NCBI GenBank assembly: GCA_028280565.1
Contig: JANQLQ010000117.1
Location: 1-38,588, forward strand
Source of the DNA: Fulvivirga sp.
Lineage (GTDB): Bacteria > Bacteroidota > Bacteroidia > Cytophagales > Cyclobacteriaceae
Length of the DNA stretch: 38,588 bases
Direction of reading: 5' to 3'
Shown one piece after another: positions 876-10,636 of the stretch (positions within the stretch are counted from its first letter, which is position 1; the number at the start of each line of letters is the position of its first letter). Below the pieces are notes generated by a model. That model worked only from the letters and a program-made list of their open reading frames with translations. It was not told the origin of the DNA and ran no database searches. The translations under genes and the position numbers were made by a program.

Positions 876-907
876 TTGAAGTAGATCAAACTATATACAT
901 ACATTTG
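876..907 (+). promoter_or_regulatory. Promoter of the tetR-rdh operon
   Basis: A -33 type TTG at 876-878 is followed after 21 bases by TACATTTG at 900-907, a perfect match to the Bacteroidota -7 consensus TAnnTTTG. Transcription would start about 915, just ahead of the tetR start at 931. The -7 box lies inside the palindromic operator, so a bound repressor should block it directly. Confidence 0.65.
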
Positions 908-921
908 TTAATGTATGTATA
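894..921. promoter_or_regulatory. TetR/AcrR-type operator palindrome
   Basis: Twelve-base arms, TATACATACATT (894-905) and AATGTATGTATA (910-921), are perfect inverted repeats around a TGTT centre. The inner 24 bases (896-919) differ from the E. coli acrAB operator, as I remember it, at a single central position. The site sits 10 bases before the tetR start and overlaps the -7 promoter box. Autorepression of the whole downstream operon is the natural inference. Confidence 0.85.
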
Positions 922-930
922 ATATAAGGC

Positions 931-1572
931 ATGAGAAGAACTAAAGAAGACGCAGAAAAGACCAGGCAGCAACTTTTAGAAGCGGCCAATATTATATTCC
1001 GAAAAAAAGGTTATGCCGCCACCAACCTGGGGGAGATAGCTGCTGCCGCGGATCTTACACGAGGAGCCATCACTTGGCATTTCCTCAACAAACAAACCAT
1101 TTTTAGAAGCCTTATCCTGGACAGTGCCATGGATGCCATGCACAGGGTAGAAGAAAACTTAAAAAGACCTGTCGACCCGCTGGAAAAGGTTATCGGATTT
1201 ATAAAGGACTTGGTGCATGACCGGGAGCGAAAACATGGGCAGATATGCCTGCTCAATAAACTGCTGGAAGAAAGCCCTGCCGAATTTGAAGATCTTAAAG
1301 AGAAGGTAATTAGTACCCAGGGGTTTATTATCGAGTCTTACAAAGGAATTATCCGCGAGGGGATAGCAGCGGGGGTTTTTCGTACCTCGATGGATCCTAG
1401 TTTTATTGCTAAATCCTTTCTTACCTTTTTCTGGGGCTTTTTTACGAATTATCCCATTATCTACTGTGAGTATACGGATGACCAATTGGTACATCACATG
1501 ACGGATTACTTCAGTCACCTGCTTCAACCTACAGAAAAGCTTAAACTCAAACTCGTTGATTCTCATGATTGA
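931..1572 (+). CDS. TetR/AcrR-family transcriptional repressor of the rdh operon
   Basis: This 213-residue protein has an N-terminal TetR helix-turn-helix: the stretch around residues 10-55 contains LGEIAAAADLTRGAITWHF, closely matching the AcrR recognition region (LGEIAKAAGVTRGAIYWHF from memory). The C-terminal helical part would bind a ligand and dimerise, and includes an aromatic-rich segment near FFWGFFTNYPIIYCEY. It starts with ATG at 931, ten bases after the operator palindrome. Its last 8 bases overlap the ATG of the first reductive dehalogenase gene, so it is the first gene of that operon and probably represses itself and the dehalogenases. Its ligand is unknown; a halogenated compound is a plausible inference. 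AcrR relatives usually guard RND efflux pumps, but no pump gene lies nearby. Confidence 0.9.
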   Translation: MRRTKEDAEKTRQQLLEAANIIFRKKGYAATNLGEIAAAADLTRGAITWHFLNKQTIFRSLILDSAMDAMHRVEENLKRPVDPLEKVIGFIKDLVHDRERKHGQICLLNKLLEESPAEFEDLKEKVISTQGFIIESYKGIIREGIAAGVFRTSMDPSFIAKSFLTFFWGFFTNYPIIYCEYTDDQLVHHMTDYFSHLLQPTEKLKLKLVDSHD

Positions 1573-2926
1573 AAAGATAGAACCTAAGCTAAGGTCCTTC
1601 AAAAAGGACCGGCGGGGATTTATGAAAAAGGCCTCGCTTTCCTTGCTAGCTCCTGTCCTGCCGTTTTCTGCTGAGCCCAATGTCCCGGGAAAGGAGCGTA
1701 AAAAGAAGAAAACGGATTTTGCTTTGTTTCGTAGGCAATACGATGCCATTGACGATATCTACGAGATAGAGTCGAATTATCGTCGCATGGACCAGGTGAA
1801 CACGGTTTTCAATCGTGGTTTCTGGGATGAAAAGGTCAAACCTGTCTTGATGTCCCTAGTTTCCAAAAAAATGGGGATGGCGCCTAATCCCTTAAAGAAT
1901 AAGCCGGGTTGGTCCCCGGTAGATCTTGCACTGGCTTCGGCAGCTACCAAGGCGACAAGCGTAACCGTAGGCTTGCGAGCTATCGGTGCCACCGATCTAG
2001 GCATACTTAATAGCTGGGAAACCCATACGAAAGAAGTAAATCCCAGCAAGCACAAGTTTAAATCTCTGGCGGAAGCCAGTAAGTATGTGAAAAGAGCGGC
2101 TAGGTTCCTCGGGGCTAGTGACGTAGGGATTGCTCCCTATGATGAGCGTTGGACATACAGCAAATGGTATGATGGTACGGCGTCGATTCTATCCGGCGGA
2201 GAAATAAAGCACGTGGAAGGTAAATTTCCTTTCAAGGTAAAGTCTGTGATAGCCATGGTCCATGAAATGGATTATGACGCCATGAAATGCCCCGGTGCGA
2301 TCAATGAAGCTGCTGTTCAAAAGGAATATGCCAGCATGGCGGAGGTGGGCTTTAAAGTGGCTACTTTTCTGAATGAACTAGGGTATCGTTGTATACCTGC
2401 CGGGAATGATCTTGGGTTAAGTGTTCCTGTCGCAATACAGGCCGGTTTAGGTGAGATCAGCCGTATGGGAACACTCATCCATGAAAAATATGGCTCTCGC
2501 ATTCGCCTTTCCAAGATATACACGGACCTGGAACTTCAGCCGGATAAACCCATCACCTTTGGCGTGCAGGAGTTTTGCCGAAAATGTAAAAAATGCGCGG
2601 TCGCCTGTCCTTCCCAGTCCATTAGCCTAGAGACCGAGCCCACAAAAGCCCCTAACACTGGGACCATCTCCAGTCACCCCGGGGTGAAGAAGTGGTACCA
2701 AAATGGTGAAACTTGCTTCCAATACTGGGAACGGCAGGGACTCGGCTGTGGGATATGCGTAGCCGTATGTCCATACAATAAGAAAGACAACTGGGTACAT
2801 GATATTTCCAAGGCCGTGGTGAGTATACCTGTAGGACGCGATGTGGCACGCCAGTTGGATGATGCCTTCGGCTATGGGGATATAAAACCGGGGAACGTCG
2901 AGGAATTCTGGAATAAAGACGATTAA
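1565..2926 (+). CDS. rdhA: Reductive dehalogenase catalytic subunit, copy 1 (RdhA)
   Basis: This is a 453-residue corrinoid iron-sulfur enzyme of the RdhA family, which removes halogen from organohalides by reduction. A twin-arginine signal (DRRGFMK, RR at 16-17) predicts folded export by Tat. Two ferredoxin-type motifs follow: CxxCxxCxxxCP at Cys338/341/344/348, and Cys384-x10-CxxCxxxCP at 395/398/402. Aligning by eye to tetrachloroethene dehalogenase PceA, its catalytic Tyr246, Asn272 and Arg305 correspond here to Tyr255, Asn281 and Arg314 with identical spacing, so the active site looks intact. The ATG at 1565 overlaps the tetR stop by 8 bases (translational coupling); a TTG three codons upstream is less likely. 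A second copy follows after 4 bases. The related QueG enzymes lack Tat signals and these neighbours. The substrate cannot be read from the sequence. Confidence 0.88.
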   Translation: MIEKIEPKLRSFKKDRRGFMKKASLSLLAPVLPFSAEPNVPGKERKKKKTDFALFRRQYDAIDDIYEIESNYRRMDQVNTVFNRGFWDEKVKPVLMSLVSKKMGMAPNPLKNKPGWSPVDLALASAATKATSVTVGLRAIGATDLGILNSWETHTKEVNPSKHKFKSLAEASKYVKRAARFLGASDVGIAPYDERWTYSKWYDGTASILSGGEIKHVEGKFPFKVKSVIAMVHEMDYDAMKCPGAINEAAVQKEYASMAEVGFKVATFLNELGYRCIPAGNDLGLSVPVAIQAGLGEISRMGTLIHEKYGSRIRLSKIYTDLELQPDKPITFGVQEFCRKCKKCAVACPSQSISLETEPTKAPNTGTISSHPGVKKWYQNGETCFQYWERQGLGCGICVAVCPYNKKDNWVHDISKAVVSIPVGRDVARQLDDAFGYGDIKPGNVEEFWNKDD

Positions 2927-2930
2927 GCCC

Positions 2931-4292
2931 ATGGAACAGCATCATTTTAAAAATGACAAAGAGAATTCAAGAAGGGATTTTCTGAAAAAATCATTGCTTT
3001 CCGGGCTGAGTGCCCCCGTTTTAGGAGGATTGGGAGTAGCGAGTGCGGTAGTGGCAGGACAGGAAAAGCAAAAATTTTCCTTTACAACTAAAAAATACAA
3101 GTCGATCGATGACATCTATAAAATCTCACCGGCCTATAAGCGTATGCGTCAAAAGAATACCATTTTTTGCCGGTGGGGATGGGACCCCAAGTATAATGAA
3201 CCTGGAGGGCGTGGGCTTAGTTTCATGACCAAATGGTTTTATATGGTACCTAACCCATTGGTGGAAGAGCCGGGTTTTGGCAAACTGGAGCACGCCCTGG
3301 AGCATGCCAGCTTTGCAGGCCAAAACGATACCACTGGGTTAAGCGGGGCAGGGGTAAGAAATGAAGGGATCTTTGCCGATTGGGATAGGTTTACCAACCC
3401 CAAGATACAGGAAAAGTACCCCTTTAAATCCCCAAAACATGCGGCGCATTACATCAAGCGGGCGGCCAGGTTTTTAGGGGCTGACGATGTGGGGGTCGCT
3501 CCTTACGATGAACGTTGGATCTACAGTAAATGGTACGATGTAGGCAAAGCCCTTAACAAGGTCCCCGGAAACTACGAGGAAGAGGCCGTTTTCCCGTTCG
3601 AGATAAAATCCGTGATCGTCACCATCCATGAAATGGACAAGGAGGCTATGAAAGTGCCCGGTTATTTAATGGACGCTGCGGCCGGCATCGGGTATGCGAA
3701 AATGGCGGAGGCTGGCCACAAAATTTCCGTGTTTCTTAACAACCTAGGCTACAAGGCTATTCCTGCTGGAAATGATACTTCGATGAGTGTACCTACGGCG
3801 ATACAAGCAGGATTAGGGGAGTACAGTAGGATGGGCACCATGATACATCCAAAGTACGGTTCAGGGGTACGGATACAGAAGGTGTATACTGACCTGGCGA
3901 TAGAACCGGACCAACCCATCACCTTTGGGGTACAGGAGTTTTGCAAAAAGTGCAAAAAATGTGCGGATCACTGTCCTTCGAAAGCCATTTCGCTGGATGA
4001 GGAACCGGGTGAAAAACCTACAGTAGATTCTATTTCTTCCCACCCGGGAGTAAAAAAGTGGTACCACGACAATGAGAAATGCTTTAGCCAATGGGAAAAA
4101 TTTGGTACAGGTTGTGGTATCTGTCTTACCGTTTGCCCTTACAACAAACCCGATACTTGGGTGCACGATCTGTCCAAAATGGTCGTGAGCGTACCTATCG
4201 GTCGCGATATAGCCCGCCAGTTGGATGATGCCTTTGGGTATGGAAATATTGAAAATAAAAACCTACAAAATTTTTGGAATAAAGAAGATTAA
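2931..4292 (+). CDS. rdhA: Reductive dehalogenase catalytic subunit, copy 2 (RdhA)
   Basis: This 453-residue paralogue of the preceding gene has the same layout. A twin-arginine signal, SRRDFLKK (RR at 14-15), is followed by a hydrophobic segment. The CxxCxxCxxxCP cluster starts at Cys338, and a second cluster uses Cys384, 395, 398 and 402. The PceA-equivalent catalytic residues are Tyr255, Asn281 and Arg314, at exactly the same numbers as in copy 1. The shared signature APYDERWxYSKWYD and the region around PAGNDxxxSVPxAIQAGLGE are nearly invariant between copies, while the N-terminal thirds (residues 60-140) differ strongly, suggesting different substrate pockets. The gene starts 4 bases after copy 1 ends and is followed 11 bases later by the anchor gene. 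The pair looks like an old tandem duplication with functional divergence. Confidence 0.88.
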   Translation: MEQHHFKNDKENSRRDFLKKSLLSGLSAPVLGGLGVASAVVAGQEKQKFSFTTKKYKSIDDIYKISPAYKRMRQKNTIFCRWGWDPKYNEPGGRGLSFMTKWFYMVPNPLVEEPGFGKLEHALEHASFAGQNDTTGLSGAGVRNEGIFADWDRFTNPKIQEKYPFKSPKHAAHYIKRAARFLGADDVGVAPYDERWIYSKWYDVGKALNKVPGNYEEEAVFPFEIKSVIVTIHEMDKEAMKVPGYLMDAAAGIGYAKMAEAGHKISVFLNNLGYKAIPAGNDTSMSVPTAIQAGLGEYSRMGTMIHPKYGSGVRIQKVYTDLAIEPDQPITFGVQEFCKKCKKCADHCPSKAISLDEEPGEKPTVDSISSHPGVKKWYHDNEKCFSQWEKFGTGCGICLTVCPYNKPDTWVHDLSKMVVSVPIGRDIARQLDDAFGYGNIENKNLQNFWNKED

Positions 4293-4303
4293 AAGAAAAA
4301 GCT

Positions 4304-5749
4304 ATGGAATTATTCACGCTCATTTCTCTCAGTGCCGCTTTTGCTCTTTCACTATATTATTTTATCCTGAAGGCTAAGAAAAACGGCTATTCGACGCGGA
4401 CTTGGAGTTTTGGAATCACCGCTATTATACTGATTCCCTTCGGGGCGGCCTGGGCGGCTACCAGCTTTGGAGAAGGTGAGCCCATGGCGGCCTACATGGG
4501 CATCTTAATTTTTAGCGGGTTAGGTCTTATTTTCGGTTTGCTGGCTTATAACAGCTTGGCGCGGAGTAAAGACCATCCCGATAGATCGGCACAAAGTGAC
4601 GGACAATCCTCAACTGCCAAACTAGGAGTTACCATTGCTTTGATTATGCTTATTAGCGTGGCAGCCATCCTGTTACCCTTGGCCCTTGGCTTGAAAAGAA
4701 CAGCCGGGATGCTCGGGAATAAAGCATCTGTGACCGAGCTAGTGGCAGAAAAAGTTCTATCCGATGAAGCCCTTCCCCTTATAATAAAGAAAACACTAGC
4801 CTATGAAACCCTCTATGGCAAATACCCTGAGACCTTGAAAGAACGGATGATGCAATCCATGCTTTCAGGTGTGGCCCCTGGGGAGATGGTAAGGCTTTTG
4901 GACCCGGTAATTCCTGCCACAGAACGGCTGGCCATACTCGACGAGGCAGCAAATAGCATCAGTAGTTGGTTAACGAGTGAAGAAACTTACCCTCAAATGA
5001 CGCTGGGACCTGGCTTGTATTTCTCCCGGTTGGGAAACGACCCCGAATTCCTGGTACGTTGGATCTACAAAAATTTTACGCTACCACCTATGCGCGATAC
5101 GGTAGTGGCAAAATTCAATGCCGGGGAGTTTTCAGACAATTTTGATCACTACATGGGCACACCCCCCGACTCGATCAAAGAAATGCTAATTGCGCCGGCT
5201 GCCCTAGCATTGCAGAAGCAACTGGCGGCCGTTGAAGTGCCGGCGGCCATCAATCTCGCGGATCAATTGCAACAGCAGGTGACTGCAGAAGAAATAACGG
5301 CCCGGAAGAGCTCTATAAAGCGTGTATTACTGGTTTTTGGGTGGGCATGGCTATTGCCGGTCCTGCTGCTTGTTGCAGCTTCGGTGATTATTGTAACGAC
5401 CAAGCGACCATTATTCAAATGGCTGGCGATCATGCTGTTATGTCTCGGTGTGGTGGGCAGCTTGATGATCAGCCCCTTGAGGGACATGGACGGAACGGTC
5501 TACACCTTGGTAGAAACAGCTTCTGGGCAGGCACCGGCACCGGCATTGGCCATACTTTTTTACACGATGCCAGTACTGCTGGCCCATGTAGGGGAACTGT
5601 TAGTACCCCTGGTCAATGGATTATTGATTGTTGGTCTTATCCTTTTGGCTGTGGCTTACAAGCAGTACATCCACGGCGGTTTCGAAACCCTTAAACAAAA
5701 ATTTGCCCATGGAAAGCACGAGAAGATCGAAGCAGCAAATAAAGCGTGA
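4304..5749 (+). CDS. Polytopic membrane protein with RdhB-like N-terminus, long fusion form
   Basis: This protein of 481 residues lies where the small dehalogenase anchor RdhB normally sits. Residues 1-90 hold three predicted membrane helices and end with a GEGEP-AAYMG segment followed by a hydrophobic FSGLGLIFGLLAY helix, resembling ordinary RdhB (about 90-100 residues, three helices, Glu-rich extracytoplasmic loop). Here the chain continues with a fourth helix (about 107-130), a soluble domain of about 210 residues (131-340), and more helices near 345-369, 375-394 and 411-455. I do not recognise the extra part. By position and topology it should tether the exported RdhA proteins to the membrane, and the added domain may contact them or the electron donor. 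Its end overlaps the rdhC-like gene by 41 bases. The RdhB assignment rests on topology and context, so it is moderate. Confidence 0.6.
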   Translation: MELFTLISLSAAFALSLYYFILKAKKNGYSTRTWSFGITAIILIPFGAAWAATSFGEGEPMAAYMGILIFSGLGLIFGLLAYNSLARSKDHPDRSAQSDGQSSTAKLGVTIALIMLISVAAILLPLALGLKRTAGMLGNKASVTELVAEKVLSDEALPLIIKKTLAYETLYGKYPETLKERMMQSMLSGVAPGEMVRLLDPVIPATERLAILDEAANSISSWLTSEETYPQMTLGPGLYFSRLGNDPEFLVRWIYKNFTLPPMRDTVVAKFNAGEFSDNFDHYMGTPPDSIKEMLIAPAALALQKQLAAVEVPAAINLADQLQQQVTAEEITARKSSIKRVLLVFGWAWLLPVLLLVAASVIIVTTKRPLFKWLAIMLLCLGVVGSLMISPLRDMDGTVYTLVETASGQAPAPALAILFYTMPVLLAHVGELLVPLVNGLLIVGLILLAVAYKQYIHGGFETLKQKFAHGKHEKIEAANKA

Positions 5750-6959
5750 CCGGGTAAAAAAGAAGAAAAGAGAAGAGCGGTTGGCGTGGGTTACCTTGCT
5801 ATTACTGGTAGCCTGTGCGATAGTTGGGTTTAACCGGGCCACGACTGATCTAACGCCTTACTTCTCGAAACTTTTCCCGGGGGCGTCTCGATTTGAAGGA
5901 GATGGCTATGAAACTTACCTGGCCTTTGATTCGGAAGAGCGCTTGATCGGGTGTGTGACCACAAGTGCTTACAATGGTTTTGGAGGGCCGTTAAAGGTGG
6001 CAGTAGCAATAGATACCATGGGTGCTGTCCTTGGAATAGAAGTGGTGGAACACCGGGAGACCCCTTCATGGTTTGATCGGGTGCAGCAAAGTGGATTGGC
6101 CGAAACCCTAGTGGGTAAAACCTACAAAGATCCCATTACACTCTATGAAGATGTAGACGGCGTGACCGGGGCTACATATACCGTACGTGCTATCGTGACC
6201 TCTGTGAAAGAAGCTACATTGGATATCGCCGAGTCAAAGTTTAACATTGACATTACACCCTATCTACCCCAAGAGCGTATCAAATTTGGTATCCCGGAGA
6301 TCAGCCTGGTACTGCTGTTGCTGGTCGCCACGATTGGTACGGCCAAAGTACCTGCCCGTCATAAAAATACCCTGAAATGGACCATTATGGTATTGGGAAT
6401 GATATTCGTAGGTTTTGTATATAACCATCCGCTTACCCTGGTGGACATCAATAAGCTGATCATGGGGTATTGGCCGGATGTTTATCATCAACTTTACTGG
6501 TACCTGCTGATCTTTGGTATCATCTTGATCTTCCTTACTACGGGTAGAAATACCTACTGCAGGTACATCTGCCCCTTTGGTGTGGTACAAGAGTGTGTAG
6601 GTGTAGTAGGGGGTGCAAAAGGGCTACATTCTAAAACCTACCACAACCTGTTTGACTGGACTCGCCGGGTGGTGGTACTTTTGGCCATTATGATCGCGTT
6701 GGTTTACAGGAACCCGGGATTAAGCTCTTACGAAGTGTACGGTACACTTTTCAACCTCTTGGGCACTAACCGGGAGGTACTTTTCCTAGGAGTTGTATTA
6801 CTCTTTTCCCTGTTTATCAAACGGCCTTGGTGTAATTATTTATGCCCTATACCGGTGATCGAACACTATGCCAGGTTCATCTATAAAAAGATACAGCAGC
6901 CCATTACCATGATGCGAAGGAAAAGGGAACCGCAATACCCTACTTTGGAAACAAAATGA
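5709..6959 (+). CDS. rdhC: RdhC/NosR-like membrane flavoprotein
   Basis: Read from ATG 5709, this 416-residue protein has one N-terminal helix (about 24-42), an extracytoplasmic FMN-binding domain, then about five membrane helices. The motif DGVTGAT (residues 150-156) fits the ApbE flavinylation consensus, with Thr156 the expected covalent FMN site. Two CxxxCP motifs (Cys284/288 and Cys375/379) lie in the membrane part, as in PceC/RdhC and NosR. Known relatives are thought to pass electrons from the quinone pool across the membrane, here to the exported RdhA enzymes. A longer TTG-initiated frame from 5628 would overlap the previous gene by 122 bases and add an unlikely hydrophobic leader, so 5709 is preferred. 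No nos genes are nearby, which favours the dehalogenase role. An ApbE gene would be needed elsewhere in the genome. Confidence 0.85.
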   Translation: MESTRRSKQQIKRDRVKKKKREERLAWVTLLLLVACAIVGFNRATTDLTPYFSKLFPGASRFEGDGYETYLAFDSEERLIGCVTTSAYNGFGGPLKVAVAIDTMGAVLGIEVVEHRETPSWFDRVQQSGLAETLVGKTYKDPITLYEDVDGVTGATYTVRAIVTSVKEATLDIAESKFNIDITPYLPQERIKFGIPEISLVLLLLVATIGTAKVPARHKNTLKWTIMVLGMIFVGFVYNHPLTLVDINKLIMGYWPDVYHQLYWYLLIFGIILIFLTTGRNTYCRYICPFGVVQECVGVVGGAKGLHSKTYHNLFDWTRRVVVLLAIMIALVYRNPGLSSYEVYGTLFNLLGTNREVLFLGVVLLFSLFIKRPWCNYLCPIPVIEHYARFIYKKIQQPITMMRRKREPQYPTLETK

Positions 6960-6966
6960 ACAGGTC

Positions 6967-7068
6967 ATGAAAAAGAACAAAGACCAAGTATTGATAGGCC
7001 TTTTCGTAATAGGTATGCTATTCATCATTGTAGAGATTGCAGCTAATATTTTCAGTTTGATCTTCTGA
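6967..7068 (+). CDS. 33-residue single-helix membrane protein
   Basis: A short open frame begins with ATG 7 bases after the rdhC-like stop. It encodes MKKNKDQ followed by a hydrophobic helix of about 22 residues (VLIGLFVIGMLFIIVEIAAN) and ends IFSLIF-stop. Basic residues at the front suggest the N-terminus stays in the cytoplasm. The tight spacing, same strand and clean helix support it as the last gene of the rdh operon. It may be a small accessory subunit of the membrane complex. No family is recognised and homologues would have to be sought. Confidence 0.5.
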   Translation: MKKNKDQVLIGLFVIGMLFIIVEIAANIFSLIF

Positions 7069-7517: not shown

Positions 7518-8261
7518 TTAAAAAACAGAACGGCCGATATAGCGTAGCTTATCCCTTTTTACAAAAGCCGTTTTGTCTCTCCAAGCTACCCTCACCCATA
7601 CATCCTGCTGGTCCCGGTAGTCGATACGGTGCCCTTTGTCCAAGATATCGATCACCTCTGCCCCGGCAGAGGGGCCGCTCATTAAGTAGGTATTGGATTC
7701 GGAGACGATCGCCTTGTTGTAGTCTCTTCCGAAGTTTAAGGTGTAAAAAAGAATTCCTAAAAATACCACCATCAGCGATGCCGGCAGTATAGGGTTTTGC
7801 TGTCTTTTGAATTTTTGATAATAAGTCAATGACAACATAAGTACGGACAGCGCCAACAGCCCATAAGTGATGATGTCAAAGTATTTATAAAAATTGGTCC
7901 GTAAGAAATCAAAATCGGTAAATTCATAACCGTCTAGCTGTTCTTTCTCTGCCAATTCCTCCATTTTTGTTAGCACTTTTCGATCTGCTGTCTTTAAGTA
8001 GTAAGTATTTAAGTAATACAGTGCGCCGCTGTAATCGCCCAACCCCTCCCGGATAAATGCCATACGCAGTAACATGGCCGAGCTAGATACTTTTTCTACT
8101 TCCAGCAAGTGATCATATACCTCGTATGATTCGGTGTACTTTTTTGCATCAAAAAGTGAATCGGCATAGGCCAACTGTTCCCCAGGCATGGCCTGGGCTA
8201 TAGTAGCCAAACCCCCACTTAGAGAAACGCTAATGACAAACAATGCAATCTTTCCATACAT
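7518..8261 (-). CDS. Membrane protein with TPR-like and SH3-like domains
   Basis: Read from ATG at 8261 the protein has 247 residues. A signal peptide (about 1-24, ending near IAQA) precedes a TPR-like helical region (AYADSLFDAKKYTESYEVYDHLL and following repeats). Two membrane helices lie near 126-148 and 157-177, and a C-terminal SH3-like beta domain (about 190-244) contains the GPSAGAEVIDILDKG and VWVRVAWRDKTAFVKRD features of bacterial SH3 domains. This architecture recalls BatE of the Bacteroidota Bat operon, but no other bat genes adjoin it, so the name is not given. A TATATTTG -7 box (8268-8275, minus strand) lies only 6 bases before the ATG, suggesting a nearly leaderless transcript; a TTG start three codons upstream is the alternative. 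Confidence 0.7.
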   Translation of the reverse strand: MYGKIALFVISVSLSGGLATIAQAMPGEQLAYADSLFDAKKYTESYEVYDHLLEVEKVSSSAMLLRMAFIREGLGDYSGALYYLNTYYLKTADRKVLTKMEELAEKEQLDGYEFTDFDFLRTNFYKYFDIITYGLLALSVLMLSLTYYQKFKRQQNPILPASLMVVFLGILFYTLNFGRDYNKAIVSESNTYLMSGPSAGAEVIDILDKGHRIDYRDQQDVWVRVAWRDKTAFVKRDKLRYIGRSVF

Positions 8262-8366
8262 AACGTACAAATATATGGTGTTGTAAGAAAAAATGAGACT
8301 TGGTCGGCAGGGATTATGTGGGTGGGACCTAGTACAGATATTTTTCCAGTTTTTTTAATGGGTTAT

Positions 8367-8453: not shown

Positions 8454-8526
8454 GATCCGATAGCTCAGTTGGTAGAGCATCTCCCTTTTAAGGAGAGGGT
8501 CCTGGGTTCGAGCCCCAGTCGGATCA
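8454..8526 (+). tRNA. tRNA-Lys (anticodon UUU)
   Basis: A complete cloverleaf of 73 bases can be folded. The acceptor stem is GATCCGA/TCGGATC, the D arm GCTC-AGTTGGTA-GAGC, the anticodon stem TCTCC/GGAGA with loop CTTTTAA (anticodon TTT), and the T arm CTGGG-TTCGAGC-CCCAG, followed by discriminator A. CCA is not encoded. Its 3' half is the target of the duplication seen at 10797-10877. Confidence 0.97.
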
Positions 8527-8528
8527 CG
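8505..8528 (+). repeat. Direct repeat, left copy, at tRNA-Lys 3' end (attL-like)
   Basis: These 24 bases, from the T arm through two bases past the discriminator, are identical to 10823-10846. Similarity continues imperfectly through the terminator and a following ATGnTCAAAGC block. The two copies bracket the AbiE pair. Position at a tRNA 3' end is typical of integrase attachment sites, although no integrase gene is present between them. Confidence 0.7.
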
Positions 8529-8854: not shown

Positions 8855-9889
8855 CTAGTACCAGTAGTAAAAGGCTTCCGGGTTACTTTTCTTGAGTTTA
8901 TTGAGCTTGTTATATGTGGCATTTTCGATCAGCCAATCTTTTATTTCTTCTGGGCTGCTGTACTTCTTTGGAGAACTAGTGGTCCCATTCATGAGTATTT
9001 GACACAAATAGGCGGTTTTGGCTCCTGCGACAATTGCCTCTTCTATTTTGAACCTGCCAATAATGAAATTGGTAATGTTCTGTATCCCTGTTTTCAGGTG
9101 TTGGAAATCCGGTTTTTTCTCATCACGCAGGGCAAGAGCCCAACAAGCCTGAAATGTATCTTCCAGTACCTGGTTTTTATCCAGGTCGAGTTTTCTGAAC
9201 TTGATCTCTTCTTTTACAACTTTATGGTACGATGCTCTGACCGTCCCTATATCCTCACTTACATCGAATAGATGGGAGATATCAAAAAGCTGTTTGATGA
9301 TCTCAGTATGCCTGCCTTTGGTATACAGGATTCCGGTTGTTTTTGGGGCAAAGGCAGTGAGCTTGTCTCCCAAGATGGCCTCCGGTACAGGAACCTCGAC
9401 TGTAACAGGCTTCCCTTCAATTTCCAACCATTCATGAGTTACTTCTAACGTCTGTATCCGTGAGTATGGATTGGCAGTATAGAGTATATCTAGGAGTATA
9501 GGCTCATCGCCATAATGCTGATCGAGTTGACTCGTGTAATAGATCTTATAATGACTCATAGGAGCGCCTATTACATGCTTTCGCTCGTTATCTGCTGACC
9601 ACTTGGTGAAGCTGGTCTCCTTTACAATTTTGTCAAGGGTAGTCTCAATCTCCTCCTGGCTGGTTTCTGTAATAATGTCGATATCTATGGAGAACCTCCT
9701 GGGAGGGTCTGTCATCAACAGTAAGCAAGTACCTCCTTTGAAGATTAACGAAATATCATTGGCCCTTAATTGTTCCAGGAGCGTAAATGCATATACTACC
9801 TTTTCCAGCATTTTTGGATCGACCCTTCTTCCCAACTTTCCAGAAGTCTCTTTTAATCTTTCGGGGTGATATGTGCTTTCGGTTATCAT
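8855..9889 (-). CDS. AbiEii-type nucleotidyltransferase toxin
   Basis: This 344-residue member of the AbiEii/AbiGii nucleotidyltransferase family is the toxin of type IV-like abortive-infection systems. The signature is intact: KGGT (residues 51-54) followed by RRFSIDIDI, placing the metal-binding pair at Asp69 and Asp71, then GDKLTAFAPKTTG and the KQLFDISHLF segment matching the conserved lysine/aspartate motif. Known relatives transfer nucleotides to RNA targets and arrest growth, protecting the population from phage. ATG 9889 lies 24 bases after the stop of the upstream antitoxin-like gene on the same strand, the usual AbiE order. The pair lies between a tRNA-Lys gene and a partial copy of it, suggesting acquisition as a defence cassette. 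Confidence 0.88.
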   Translation of the reverse strand: MITESTYHPERLKETSGKLGRRVDPKMLEKVVYAFTLLEQLRANDISLIFKGGTCLLLMTDPPRRFSIDIDIITETSQEEIETTLDKIVKETSFTKWSADNERKHVIGAPMSHYKIYYTSQLDQHYGDEPILLDILYTANPYSRIQTLEVTHEWLEIEGKPVTVEVPVPEAILGDKLTAFAPKTTGILYTKGRHTEIIKQLFDISHLFDVSEDIGTVRASYHKVVKEEIKFRKLDLDKNQVLEDTFQACWALALRDEKKPDFQHLKTGIQNITNFIIGRFKIEEAIVAGAKTAYLCQILMNGTTSSPKKYSSPEEIKDWLIENATYNKLNKLKKSNPEAFYYWY

Positions 9890-9913
9890 TTCAAATAATT
9901 GGCAAATTCATGT

Positions 9914-10636
9914 CTATATTGCCGAAGTTTTGACTAAGTATTTTTCTACTTCCTCTTGCTGGTTTCTCCGAGAGGCATACCTTCTCATTTTTTGCTTGTT
10001 GATAGAATATTTTTCATTTGCCGCCCTATATATATTTTCAACTTCTCCTTGCTGAGCGGCAAAAAGATTCTTGTCGATCAGCACATCAACTAGTAGTTTC
10101 TCCAAGGGTGCTATCCGGTATCCATTCTGTTTGGAAATTGGAGCTTCTGATACCAGGGGCTTTACTATAATGGCCTCATCAAAATTTGAGACGTATCTCT
10201 CGTACATCGTAGCATCAGGGTTCAGAAATGCCTTTTTGCTAAAATCTGTAATGGAGCTGAAAACCGATTCCAGGACATCCTTTTCCACTTCTGCTACCAA
10301 CTGGTACCGAAAAAGTTGATGAATCATAAATTCATTGAACCACCGGCTGTCCCAAACACAGAATTCGACATATGGAAATTCTTTCTTGATCCTGTCATGC
10401 AGTCTTTTGAGCGAATTAGAGATCGCCGGCTCGAATCCGTTTACCGGTTCCAGTGAGTATTTCCCCCTTGAAACATGATGAATGGCACCCTCTTCTTTGA
10501 GTTTATGGATATTCCAATTAACCGTTTGCTCCGCCCAATCAGGGTAATATTTAACCAAGAAAGAGACCAGTTCTCCTTTTGAAAGAACGGATTTTTCTCC
10601 GAAGGCATTCTTGATTAGTTGATTGATATTCTTCAA
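9914..10636 (-). CDS. AbiEi-like winged-helix antitoxin partner (DUF6577-like)
   Basis: This protein of 240 residues lies immediately upstream of the toxin. The N-terminal 70 residues look like a winged helix: a helical part (LSKGELVSFLVKYYPDWAEQTVNWNIHKLKEEG) leads into the wing AIHHVSRGKYSL. This is the domain by which AbiEi-type antitoxins bind their own promoter. The rest (residues 75-240) contains the EFCVWDSRWFNEFM and PLEKLLVDVLIDKN segments seen in antitoxin-like partners of AbiEii toxins. The start is TTG at 10636; an in-frame stop lies four codons further upstream and no ATG is suitably placed, so this weak start may limit its synthesis. The inverted repeat TACTTT/AAAGTA about 65 bases upstream (10700-10715) is a candidate autoregulatory site. 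The family name is from memory and moderately sure. Confidence 0.75.
   Translation of the reverse strand: MKNINQLIKNAFGEKSVLSKGELVSFLVKYYPDWAEQTVNWNIHKLKEEGAIHHVSRGKYSLEPVNGFEPAISNSLKRLHDRIKKEFPYVEFCVWDSRWFNEFMIHQLFRYQLVAEVEKDVLESVFSSITDFSKKAFLNPDATMYERYVSNFDEAIIVKPLVSEAPISKQNGYRIAPLEKLLVDVLIDKNLFAAQQGEVENIYRAANEKYSINKQKMRRYASRRNQQEEVEKYLVKTSAI

What the first reader, a model, noticed from the sequence alone, without database searches (positions are those of the whole stretch)
931..7068. Complete reductive dehalogenase operon in a Bacteroidota background
Two Tat-exported RdhA proteins, each with both iron-sulfur motifs and with the PceA-equivalent Tyr/Asn/Arg (Tyr255, Asn281, Arg314) at identical positions, are followed by an RdhB-like anchor and an RdhC/NosR-like flavoprotein. 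Organohalide respiration is best known in Chloroflexota, Firmicutes and some Proteobacteria. A compact respiratory-type cluster in an apparently polysaccharide-degrading Bacteroidota is unusual and could use natural marine organohalides such as bromophenols.
Basis: partly seen in the sequence, partly recalled or inferred. Interest (0 to 1): 0.9.

Follow-up and report, generated by a model that had tools for sequence, protein, structure and literature searches.

The report
Variant reductive-dehalogenase operon with hidden microprotein
A polysaccharide-degrading bacterium of the phylum Bacteroidota appears to have acquired a complete gene set for respiring halogen-containing organic compounds; the set carries a new fused membrane part and a tiny, apparently unannotated membrane-protein gene that also sits in classic dehalogenating bacteria, so the standard picture of this gene set may be incomplete.

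Summary
Window 931-7068 is one tight operon: tetR, two Tat-type RdhA genes (TIGR02486, 247 and 246 bits; cut-off 160), an RdhB-type anchor, RdhC and a 33-aa single-TM ORF. Catalytic Tyr/Asn/Arg, both Fe-S motifs, menaquinone-site residues and RdhB's EXE motif are present; trees place both RdhAs among RDases, far from QueG. RDases in Bacteroidota are already in print, so the phylum is not the surprise. In this family the gene is rare (2 of 390 genomes, own included; 0 of 14 congeners), and the five congeners read carry another gene at this place: acquired. The genome has three such operons, cobalamin genes and ApbE. New points: (1) the anchor is RdhB fused to a ~375-aa membrane/periplasmic domain without database match, found only beside rdhA in the genomes searched; fused copies track one RdhA clade; (2) a single-TM micro-ORF follows rdhC at 36 of 44 rdhC ends versus 0 of 429 other gene ends, and lies between pceC and pceT in a classic pce operon; (3) the tetR operator matches the E. 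coli AcrR box at 23 of 24 bases. Substrate, activity and translation of the micro-ORF are untested.

The parts
894..921 (.). perfect 12-bp inverted repeat (4-nt spacer), likely operator of the TetR protein; core 896-919 differs from the E. coli AcrR box at 1 of 24 bases; overlaps a promoter-like site (TATAAT 918-923)
   Evidence: (arms with up to 3 mismatches: 0 in 100 shuffles); AcrR box as printed in PMC9769551
931..1572 (+). tetR, AcrR-like repressor, 213 aa; its end overlaps the rdhA1 start
   Evidence: TetR_N 44.8 bits; best NCBIfam profiles AcrS/EnvR, MtrR and AcrR, all far below their cut-offs
1565..2926 (+). rdhA1, catalytic reductive dehalogenase with twin-arginine motif
   Evidence: TIGR02486 247.2 bits; motifs; trees
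2931..4292 (+). rdhA2, catalytic reductive dehalogenase with twin-arginine motif
   Evidence: TIGR02486 246.4 bits; AF2 mean pLDDT 85.1, best PDB match 8q4h_A TMq 0.78
4304..4579 (+). RdhB domain of the anchor protein (aa 1-92), three predicted TM helices, EXE motif E57-G58-E59
   Evidence: profile of two fusion N-termini finds stand-alone RdhBs; PceB chain 8q4h_C is the only PDB sequence match, E 0.018, and matches by fold at prob 1.00, TMt 0.73, E 0.54
4616..5749 (+). new C-terminal 'ext' domain of the same 481-aa protein (gene 4304-5749): TM anchor, ~200-aa helical part likely periplasmic, further TM helices
   Evidence: no Pfam or NCBIfam family, no significant PDB match; only beside rdhA in the genomes searched
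5709..6959 (+). rdhC, membrane flavoprotein (FMN_bind, two CX3CP)
   Evidence: motif consensus from PMC5928378
6967..7068 (+). 33-aa single-TM micro-ORF after rdhC
7518..8270 (-). genus-conserved flanking gene (SH3-like) that marks the insertion point; not part of the operon
   Evidence: 14 of 15 genus genomes, own included; neighbourhood in 5 congeners
8454..8527 (+). tRNA-Lys, same place in the 5 congeners read; not part of the operon

Best explanation
This is a horizontally acquired, inducible menaquinol:organohalide oxidoreductase operon in a Bacteroidota host, of a variant architecture. Proposed working: an AcrR-like repressor sits on the inverted repeat over the promoter and leaves when a hydrophobic ligand, perhaps a halogenated aromatic, binds (inferred). 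RdhA1 and RdhA2 are exported by Tat with a corrinoid and two [4Fe-4S] clusters (motifs shown, cofactors inferred). Menaquinol is oxidised at the site formed by the RdhA C-terminal helices and RdhB TM2/TM3, and electrons pass through the two clusters to cobalt, where halide is removed with help of Tyr255 and Arg314 (inferred from PceA2B2 and PceA). The RdhB domain anchors the complex; the fused ext domain, which has no invariant Cys or His and so probably no redox cofactor, most likely is a structural or assembly collar on the periplasmic face (weakest step). RdhC, probably flavinylated by ApbE at Thr156, and the 33-aa single-TM protein form an accessory membrane unit for electron input or maturation (inferred).
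For: Family scores over the curated cut-off; catalytic and Fe-S residues; the K489, H495, D515 and Y520 menaquinone-site residues of 8Q4H (PMC10624902 passages) correspond without gaps to K406, H412, D432 and Y437, with R499 as K416 (alignments; residues); E61/E63 of PceB correspond to E57/E59; fold matches; trees. Acquisition: 0 of 14 congeners and 2 of 390 family genomes, own included, at E 1e-40; the five congeners read carry another gene at this place. Corrinoid cluster with CobN, CobQ, CobB, CbiB, PduO and CobW over their cut-offs and ApbE. Ext: 11 copies in 8 of 31 rdh-bearing genomes, all 11 beside rdhA, and none in 394 other genomes of the phylum. Micro-ORF 36 of 44 rdhC ends versus 0 of 429 other ends, pN/pS 0.38-0.45. 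Operator.
Against: No activity, expression or substrate data. PF13486 (Pfam's dehalogenase domain) is not matched, though it rang in none of 14 control genomes either. Of the polar corrinoid-edge residues that PMC10624902 names for D. hafniense PceA, H395, N454, H461 and S479 are not kept (read from the alignments), K399 is (K317) and N68 lies outside the alignments. The ext and micro-ORF roles are guesses from topology. The AcrR box is not found in the sister operon L080 or any other locus scanned. The left border of the insertion is not in the contig.
Confidence: 0.72

Rival explanations
1. The enzymes are corrinoid/Fe-S reductases of the RdhA fold whose real substrate is not an organohalide, or they serve detoxification rather than respiration.
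For: No assay; corrinoid-edge residues differ from D. hafniense PceA (alignments); RdhA is patchy in this family; AcrR-like regulation is more typical of stress and efflux genes (recalled).
Against: Catalytic and menaquinone-site residues are kept; twin-arginine motifs, RdhB and RdhC point to a quinone-linked periplasmic enzyme; the closest solved relative is a PCE dehalogenase.
Confidence: 0.2
2. The ext domain is itself an electron-transfer or ion-translocating module that adds energy conservation to the complex.
For: It is a multi-TM domain fused to the quinone-side subunit and stays next to rdhA when separate.
Against: No Cys or His among the 16 invariant columns of 9 copies; invariant charged residues are one Glu and one Lys only; no significant match to a redox or pump fold.
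Confidence: 0.12
3. The contig is a mis-binned foreign sequence rather than part of this genome.
For: 337-contig assembly with 2.19% contamination; 0 of 14 congeners have RdhA.
Against: The flanking gene is genus-conserved (14 of 15 genomes, own included) and stands beside tRNA-Lys in the 5 congeners read as it does here; two further rdh operons lie on other contigs; GC of the operon equals the rest of the window (0.472 and 0.468).
Confidence: 0.04
4. The micro-ORF is chance hydrophobic coding potential after rdhC.
For: Very short; sequences differ strongly between groups, so common descent across phyla is not shown; it is missing at 7 of 45 uncut rdhC ends; many of the operons are close relatives, so the counts are not independent.
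Against: 36 of 44 versus 0 of 429; 12 of 13 rdhC ends in the phylum of L042 with looser placement (6 of 13 strictly), control 1 of 92 by the strict rule; pN/pS 0.38-0.45; AGGAGG before the ORF in the pce operon; more positive charge on the N side in 19 of 21 peptides chosen by me.
Confidence: 0.06

Closest known systems
PceA2B2 menaquinol:organohalide oxidoreductase of Desulfitobacterium hafniense (PDB 8Q4H; pceABCT)
   Same: RdhA fold (TMq 0.78), catalytic Tyr/Arg, menaquinone-site residues, RdhB with EXE, RdhC present, single-TM small ORF after pceC in a pce operon (L121)
   Different: Two RdhAs per operon, RdhB fused to ext, no pceT-like gene in the operon, AcrR-like regulator, Bacteroidota host
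Hybrid RdhAs with N-terminal TM helices in Bacteroidetes and Deltaproteobacteria (Atashgahi 2019, PMC6797604, parts 1-2 of 4 read)
   Same: Bacteroidota RDases; a module with three TM helices and EXE takes part in a fusion
   Different: Here RdhA keeps its twin-arginine motif and is separate; RdhB is fused to a different, new domain
rdhABC operons of Marinilabiliales and Flavobacteriaceae records and RDase bins of Aarhus Bay (PMC12090745, passages)
   Same: rdhA-rdhB-rdhC order; micro-ORF after most rdhC genes of the fetched loci
   Different: Their RdhAs belong to other clades; in flavobacterial loci L015-L017 ext is a separate gene and RdhB is small
tetR-rdhA-rdhBX-rdhC operon in genome G201 (L080; the genome that also holds the Croceivirga MAG locus L015) and MAG loci L008 and L009
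   Same: Same RdhA clade (SH-aLRT 100) and the same RdhB::ext fusion; L080 also has a TetR-like gene upstream and the micro-ORF
   Different: One rdhA instead of two; in L008 rdhC precedes rdhA; L080 lacks the AcrR box

Membership tests
Respiratory reductive dehalogenase RdhA | TIGR02486 above curated cut-off | tested here: met
   247.2 and 246.4 bits, cut-off 160.35
Respiratory reductive dehalogenase RdhA | Twin-arginine signal | tested here: met
   RRGFMKK and RRDFLKK; by profile weaker: TIGR01409 scores 15.3 against a 16.7 cut-off for RdhA2 and is not among the 25 families shown for RdhA1
Respiratory reductive dehalogenase RdhA | Two Fe-S motifs | tested here: met
   CX2CX2CX3CP at 338 and CX2CX3CP at 395 in both
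Respiratory reductive dehalogenase RdhA | Catalytic Tyr/Asn/Arg | tested here: met
   Y255, N281, R314 in both, aligned with SmPceA; Y246 and R305 named, N272 recalled
Respiratory reductive dehalogenase RdhA | Menaquinone-site residues of PceA2B2 | tested here: met
   K406, H412, D432, Y437; R499 is K416 (PMC10624902 passages)
Respiratory reductive dehalogenase RdhA | PF13486 dehalogenase domain | tested here: inconclusive
   Not matched, but matched in 0 of 14 control genomes, and no known RdhA was scanned as a positive control
Respiratory reductive dehalogenase RdhA | Bound corrinoid and halide release | not testable with these tools
   Needs protein
QueG epoxyqueuosine reductase | QueG model above cut-off / tree position with QueG | tested here: not met
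   TIGR00276 55.3 and 48.3 bits, cut-off 200; the host's own QueG-like gene (L006) is a long outgroup branch
RdhB membrane anchor | Three TM helices and EXE motif | tested here: met
   Helices 2-27, 31-56, 60-88; E57-G58-E59
RdhB membrane anchor | Small protein (89 aa in 8q4h_C, ~95-125 aa open frames in the fetched loci) | tested here: not met
   481 aa; fused to ext
RdhC | [ST]G[AS]TX[ST] flavin motif and two CX3CP | tested here: met
   TGATYT at 153, CX3CP at 284 and 375; consensus PMC5928378
RdhC | Covalent FMN on the protein | not testable with these tools
   ApbE is present in the genome
Hybrid RdhA of Atashgahi 2019 | RdhA with N-terminal TM helices and no Tat signal | tested here: not met
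   Twin-arginine motif present and RdhB on a separate gene
AcrR regulator | AcrR model above cut-off | tested here: not met
   68.7 bits, cut-off 271; the operator matches the AcrR box at 23 of 24 bases, so it may work like AcrR without being AcrR

The most novel reading that the evidence does not exclude
rdhC-bearing reductive dehalogenase operons of several phyla, the paradigm pceABCT included, encode an overlooked single-TM micro-subunit (about 30-60 aa, N-terminus inside) that works with RdhC, as CydX does with cytochrome bd (comparison recalled); and one lineage has in addition built a new RDase complex in which RdhB is fused to a large periplasmic domain that holds a pair of RdhAs.
Probability: 0.5. 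Interest if true: 0.78.

Novelty: new variant of a known kind. Interest (0 to 1): 0.62.

Why it matters
The function of RdhC and the full subunit list of respiratory dehalogenases are open questions; PceC was found about 50-fold less abundant than PceA (PMC8905343, passages). A conserved micro-gene after rdhC, also between pceC and pceT, can be tested at once in existing Dehalobacter or Desulfitobacterium proteomes and preparations. The RdhB::ext fusion gives a natural, covalently linked partner of RdhB. The operon also adds a carbohydrate-degrading Bacteroidota lineage, which got it by transfer, to the candidates for halogen cycling.

Tried and rejected
QueG or another non-dehalogenating clade: rejected by cut-offs and trees. 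Plain RdhB: rejected, since the protein is 481 aa with a second domain. Hybrid RdhA of the 2019 type: rejected, since RdhA has a twin-arginine motif and RdhB is a separate gene. Contamination: unlikely. The B12 receptor profile TIGR01779 gave 79 TonB-receptor hits, none over the cut-off, and says nothing alone. PF13486 rang nowhere. A profile search of ext against PDB gave three hits at E 0.12 to 5.7, taken as chance; Foldseek gave no match at E <= 0.001 for the whole model, and only the RdhB part has a high-probability match. RdhC finds no plasmid record; RdhA finds 10 records, none covering 80%. A literature search with TetR was useless because the term also matches 'tetrachloro'. For an rdh micro-ORF in print I saw listings only: 123 papers, 12 listed; 1 paper; 257 papers, 10 listed; no listed title or start of abstract names one. 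Word searches inside PMC8905343 and PMC5928378 gave 0 for 'open reading', 'ORF' and 'small protein'. Subscription papers are mostly not held, so this is weak evidence of absence.
Full report
What is there. Between 894 and 7068 lies one tight transcription unit: operator 894-921, tetR 931-1572, rdhA1 1565-2926 (overlaps tetR), rdhA2 2931-4292, a 481-aa anchor gene 4304-5749, rdhC 5709-6959 (overlaps the anchor gene), and a 33-aa ORF 6967-7068. Both RdhAs pass TIGR02486 (247.2 and 246.4 bits against 160.35) and carry twin-arginine motifs, both Fe-S motifs and Y255/N281/R314. Pfam's PF13486 is not matched; it rang in none of 14 control genomes and I scanned no known RdhA with it, so I count this as uninformative.

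Respiratory coupling. The PceA2B2 structure paper (PMC10624902, passages) places menaquinone between PceA's C-terminal helices and PceB, with K489, H495, R499, D515 and Y520 of PceA and E61/E63 of PceB. In the gap-free alignment these are K406, H412, K416, D432 and Y437 in both window RdhAs; the EXE pair is E57/E59 in the anchor. The same K, H, D and Y are invariant in all five RdhAs of this genome. The AF2 model of RdhA2 (mean pLDDT 85.1) matches 8q4h_A best (TMq 0.78), then S. multivorans PceA (up to 0.70), NpRdhA (up to 0.58) and QueG (about 0.3). Of the corrinoid-edge residues named for D. hafniense PceA, K399 is kept and H395, N454, H461 and S479 are not, so cofactor details and substrate may differ.

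Phylogeny. In a tree of 82 rows (rows left out beforehand are told under Tried and rejected) the two window RdhAs, the C333 RdhA (L067), L080 (genome G201), L008 and L009 (MAGs labelled Deltaproteobacteria and Desulfobacteraceae) form one clade (SH-aLRT 100). It falls in a 12-row group (91, not starred) with D. hafniense PceA and the near-identical PceA of L121; the host's QueG-like gene is a long outgroup; S. multivorans PceA and NpRdhA lie elsewhere. A first tree of 76 rows gave the same six rows as a clade (99), with the place of D. hafniense PceA unresolved. The quick method gives SH-aLRT only, no bootstraps.

The anchor is a fusion. A profile of the first ~92 aa of two fused anchors of this genome finds the small RdhBs next to rdhA in most fetched loci. 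In the AF2 model (mean pLDDT 77.9) this part matches PceB of 8Q4H (prob 1.00, TMt 0.73, E 0.54), while nothing else matches convincingly. The remaining ~375 aa ('ext') have no Pfam or NCBIfam family and no significant PDB sequence match. Hydropathy and the model give one TM helix, a helical part with pLDDT near 90 that should be periplasmic, and further TM helices modelled at only about 60-75. None of the 16 invariant columns in 9 copies is Cys or His. A whole-genome search with the ext alignment hit 8 of 31 rdh-bearing genomes with 11 copies, all beside rdhA, but only the window's own genome among 395 genomes of the phylum (up to 5 candidates scored per genome). Fused copies (window, C333, L080, L008, L009) go with the six-row RdhA clade. 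Separate copies (C34, L015, L016, L017, L040, and in L026 a copy cut off by the contig end) follow directly after an RdhA of another well supported clade.

The host. G000 has 9.05 Mb in 337 contigs and three rdh operons: this one, C333 (rdhA-rdhB::ext-rdhC) and C34 (rdhA-rdhA-ext-rdhB-rdhC; two downstream ORFs look by eye like 2-oxoacid:ferredoxin oxidoreductase subunits). It has a cobalamin locus with CobN, CobQ, CobB, CbiB, PduO and CobW over their cut-offs and a CobD-like protein below its cut-off, and ApbE. RdhA occurs in 2 of 390 genomes of the family, own included, and in 0 of 14 congeners, at E 1e-40. The gene right of the operon (7518-8270) is found in 14 of 15 genomes of the genus, own included. 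In the five congeners read it stands beside tRNA-Lys as here, while the side where the rdh operon lies carries a gene of about 890-955 aa (open frames). So the operon most likely is an insertion at a conserved site; the left border is outside the contig.

Regulation. A perfect 12-bp inverted repeat ends 9 bases before tetR and overlaps a promoter-like site (such sites are not more frequent in the region than in shuffles). Its 24-bp core differs at one base from the AcrR site of the E. coli acrAB promoter printed in PMC9769551 (passages); none of 100 shuffles has the arms with up to 3 mismatches. The protein is not AcrR by cut-off (68.7 of 271 bits). With up to 5 mismatches the box was found in no other locus held (L002 is a copy of the window), L080 included, so the link between regulator and box rests on this operon. 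AcrR among regulators expressed in the RDase cultures is mentioned in PMC12090745.

The micro-ORF. The 33-aa ORF has counterparts after rdhC in 38 of 45 uncut operons. With a strict rule (single TM, at most 55 aa, start -60 to +30 of the gene end) it is at 36 of 44 rdhC ends and at 0 of 429 ends of other genes of at least 250 aa in the same loci; with the looser rule 37 of 44 and 5 of 429. Many of these operons are close relatives, so they are not independent. In 20 stretches that I chose from 10 genomes of the phylum of L042, 12 of 13 rdhC ends have a TM small ORF starting within -73 to +61, 9 of them with Met, 6 of 13 by the strict rule; control 1 of 92 by the strict rule. One of the 13 is the same locus as L042, and two have the same peptide. 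Four groups give pN/pS 0.38-0.45, with pS near saturation (0.58-0.83), so this is rough. In L121, whose PceA is nearly identical to D. hafniense PceA, the order is pceA, pceB, pceC, a 47-aa TM ORF preceded by AGGAGG, pceT; the pceB, pceC and pceT frames contain the reference peptides printed in PMC8905343. More positive charge lies on the N side in 19 of 21 peptides that I picked. Whether all are descended from one ancestor is not shown. I saw no report of it in the listings or in the word searches.

Compared with what is known. RDases in Bacteroidota are in print: PMC6797604 (parts 1-2 of 4 read) and PMC12090745 (passages read; 112 Bacteroidota genomes, RDase genes of Bacteroidales bins transcribed). 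A search for Flavobacteriaceae with rdhA gave two papers; the one opened (PMC8443593, passages) lists RdhA as a trait of the community. I did not see the RdhB::ext architecture or the micro-ORF in what I read. Hence a new variant of a known kind, with a micro-subunit claim that can be tested quickly.

Shown and inferred. Shown by computation: gene content, motifs, clades, linkage of ext to rdhA, over-representation of the micro-ORF after rdhC, a different gene at the same site in congeners. Inferred: export, cofactor load, menaquinol coupling, derepression by a ligand, roles of ext, RdhC and the micro-protein, and any halogenated substrate.

Noticed in passing
window 15378-37326: Polysaccharide-utilisation locus: FecR, SusC, SusD, a 2373-aa CBM96/fn3/Por_Secre_tail protein, ricin-lectin protein, sulfatase, GH92 and GH28.
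   Followed up: partly
window 8855-10636: AbiEii-type nucleotidyltransferase gene next to a DUF6577 gene, a possible toxin-antitoxin/defence pair.
   Followed up: no
L066 9020-14711 (own contig C34): A third rdh operon, rdhA-rdhA-ext-rdhB-rdhC, whose two RdhAs belong to two clades shared with Flavobacteriaceae records and, for one of them, a Melioribacteraceae MAG.
   Followed up: partly
L121, reverse complement, between pceC (end 4796) and pceT (frame 4879-5874): 47-aa single-TM ORF with AGGAGG in front, inside a classic pce operon; the papers read in passages name only pceA, pceB, pceC and pceT there.
   Followed up: partly
L059 9338-12292 and L065 9507-12458: Shewanella loci carry an RdhC-like match in open frames of 984 and 983 aa, perhaps RdhC fused to something else; no micro-ORF follows there.
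   Followed up: no
L049 2973-4718: 581-aa RdhA open frame that also matches the RdhB profile, perhaps a hybrid of the type described in 2019, in a MAG labelled Bacteroides.
   Followed up: no
L088 1-20000 (own contig C214): Cobalamin synthesis cluster (CobN, CobQ, CobB, CbiB, PduO, CobW, CobD-like) beside a TonB receptor.
   Followed up: partly
G087 C421 (L007/L068): A second genome of the same family has a divergent RdhA on a 3-kb contig; it joins long branches in both trees.
   Followed up: no
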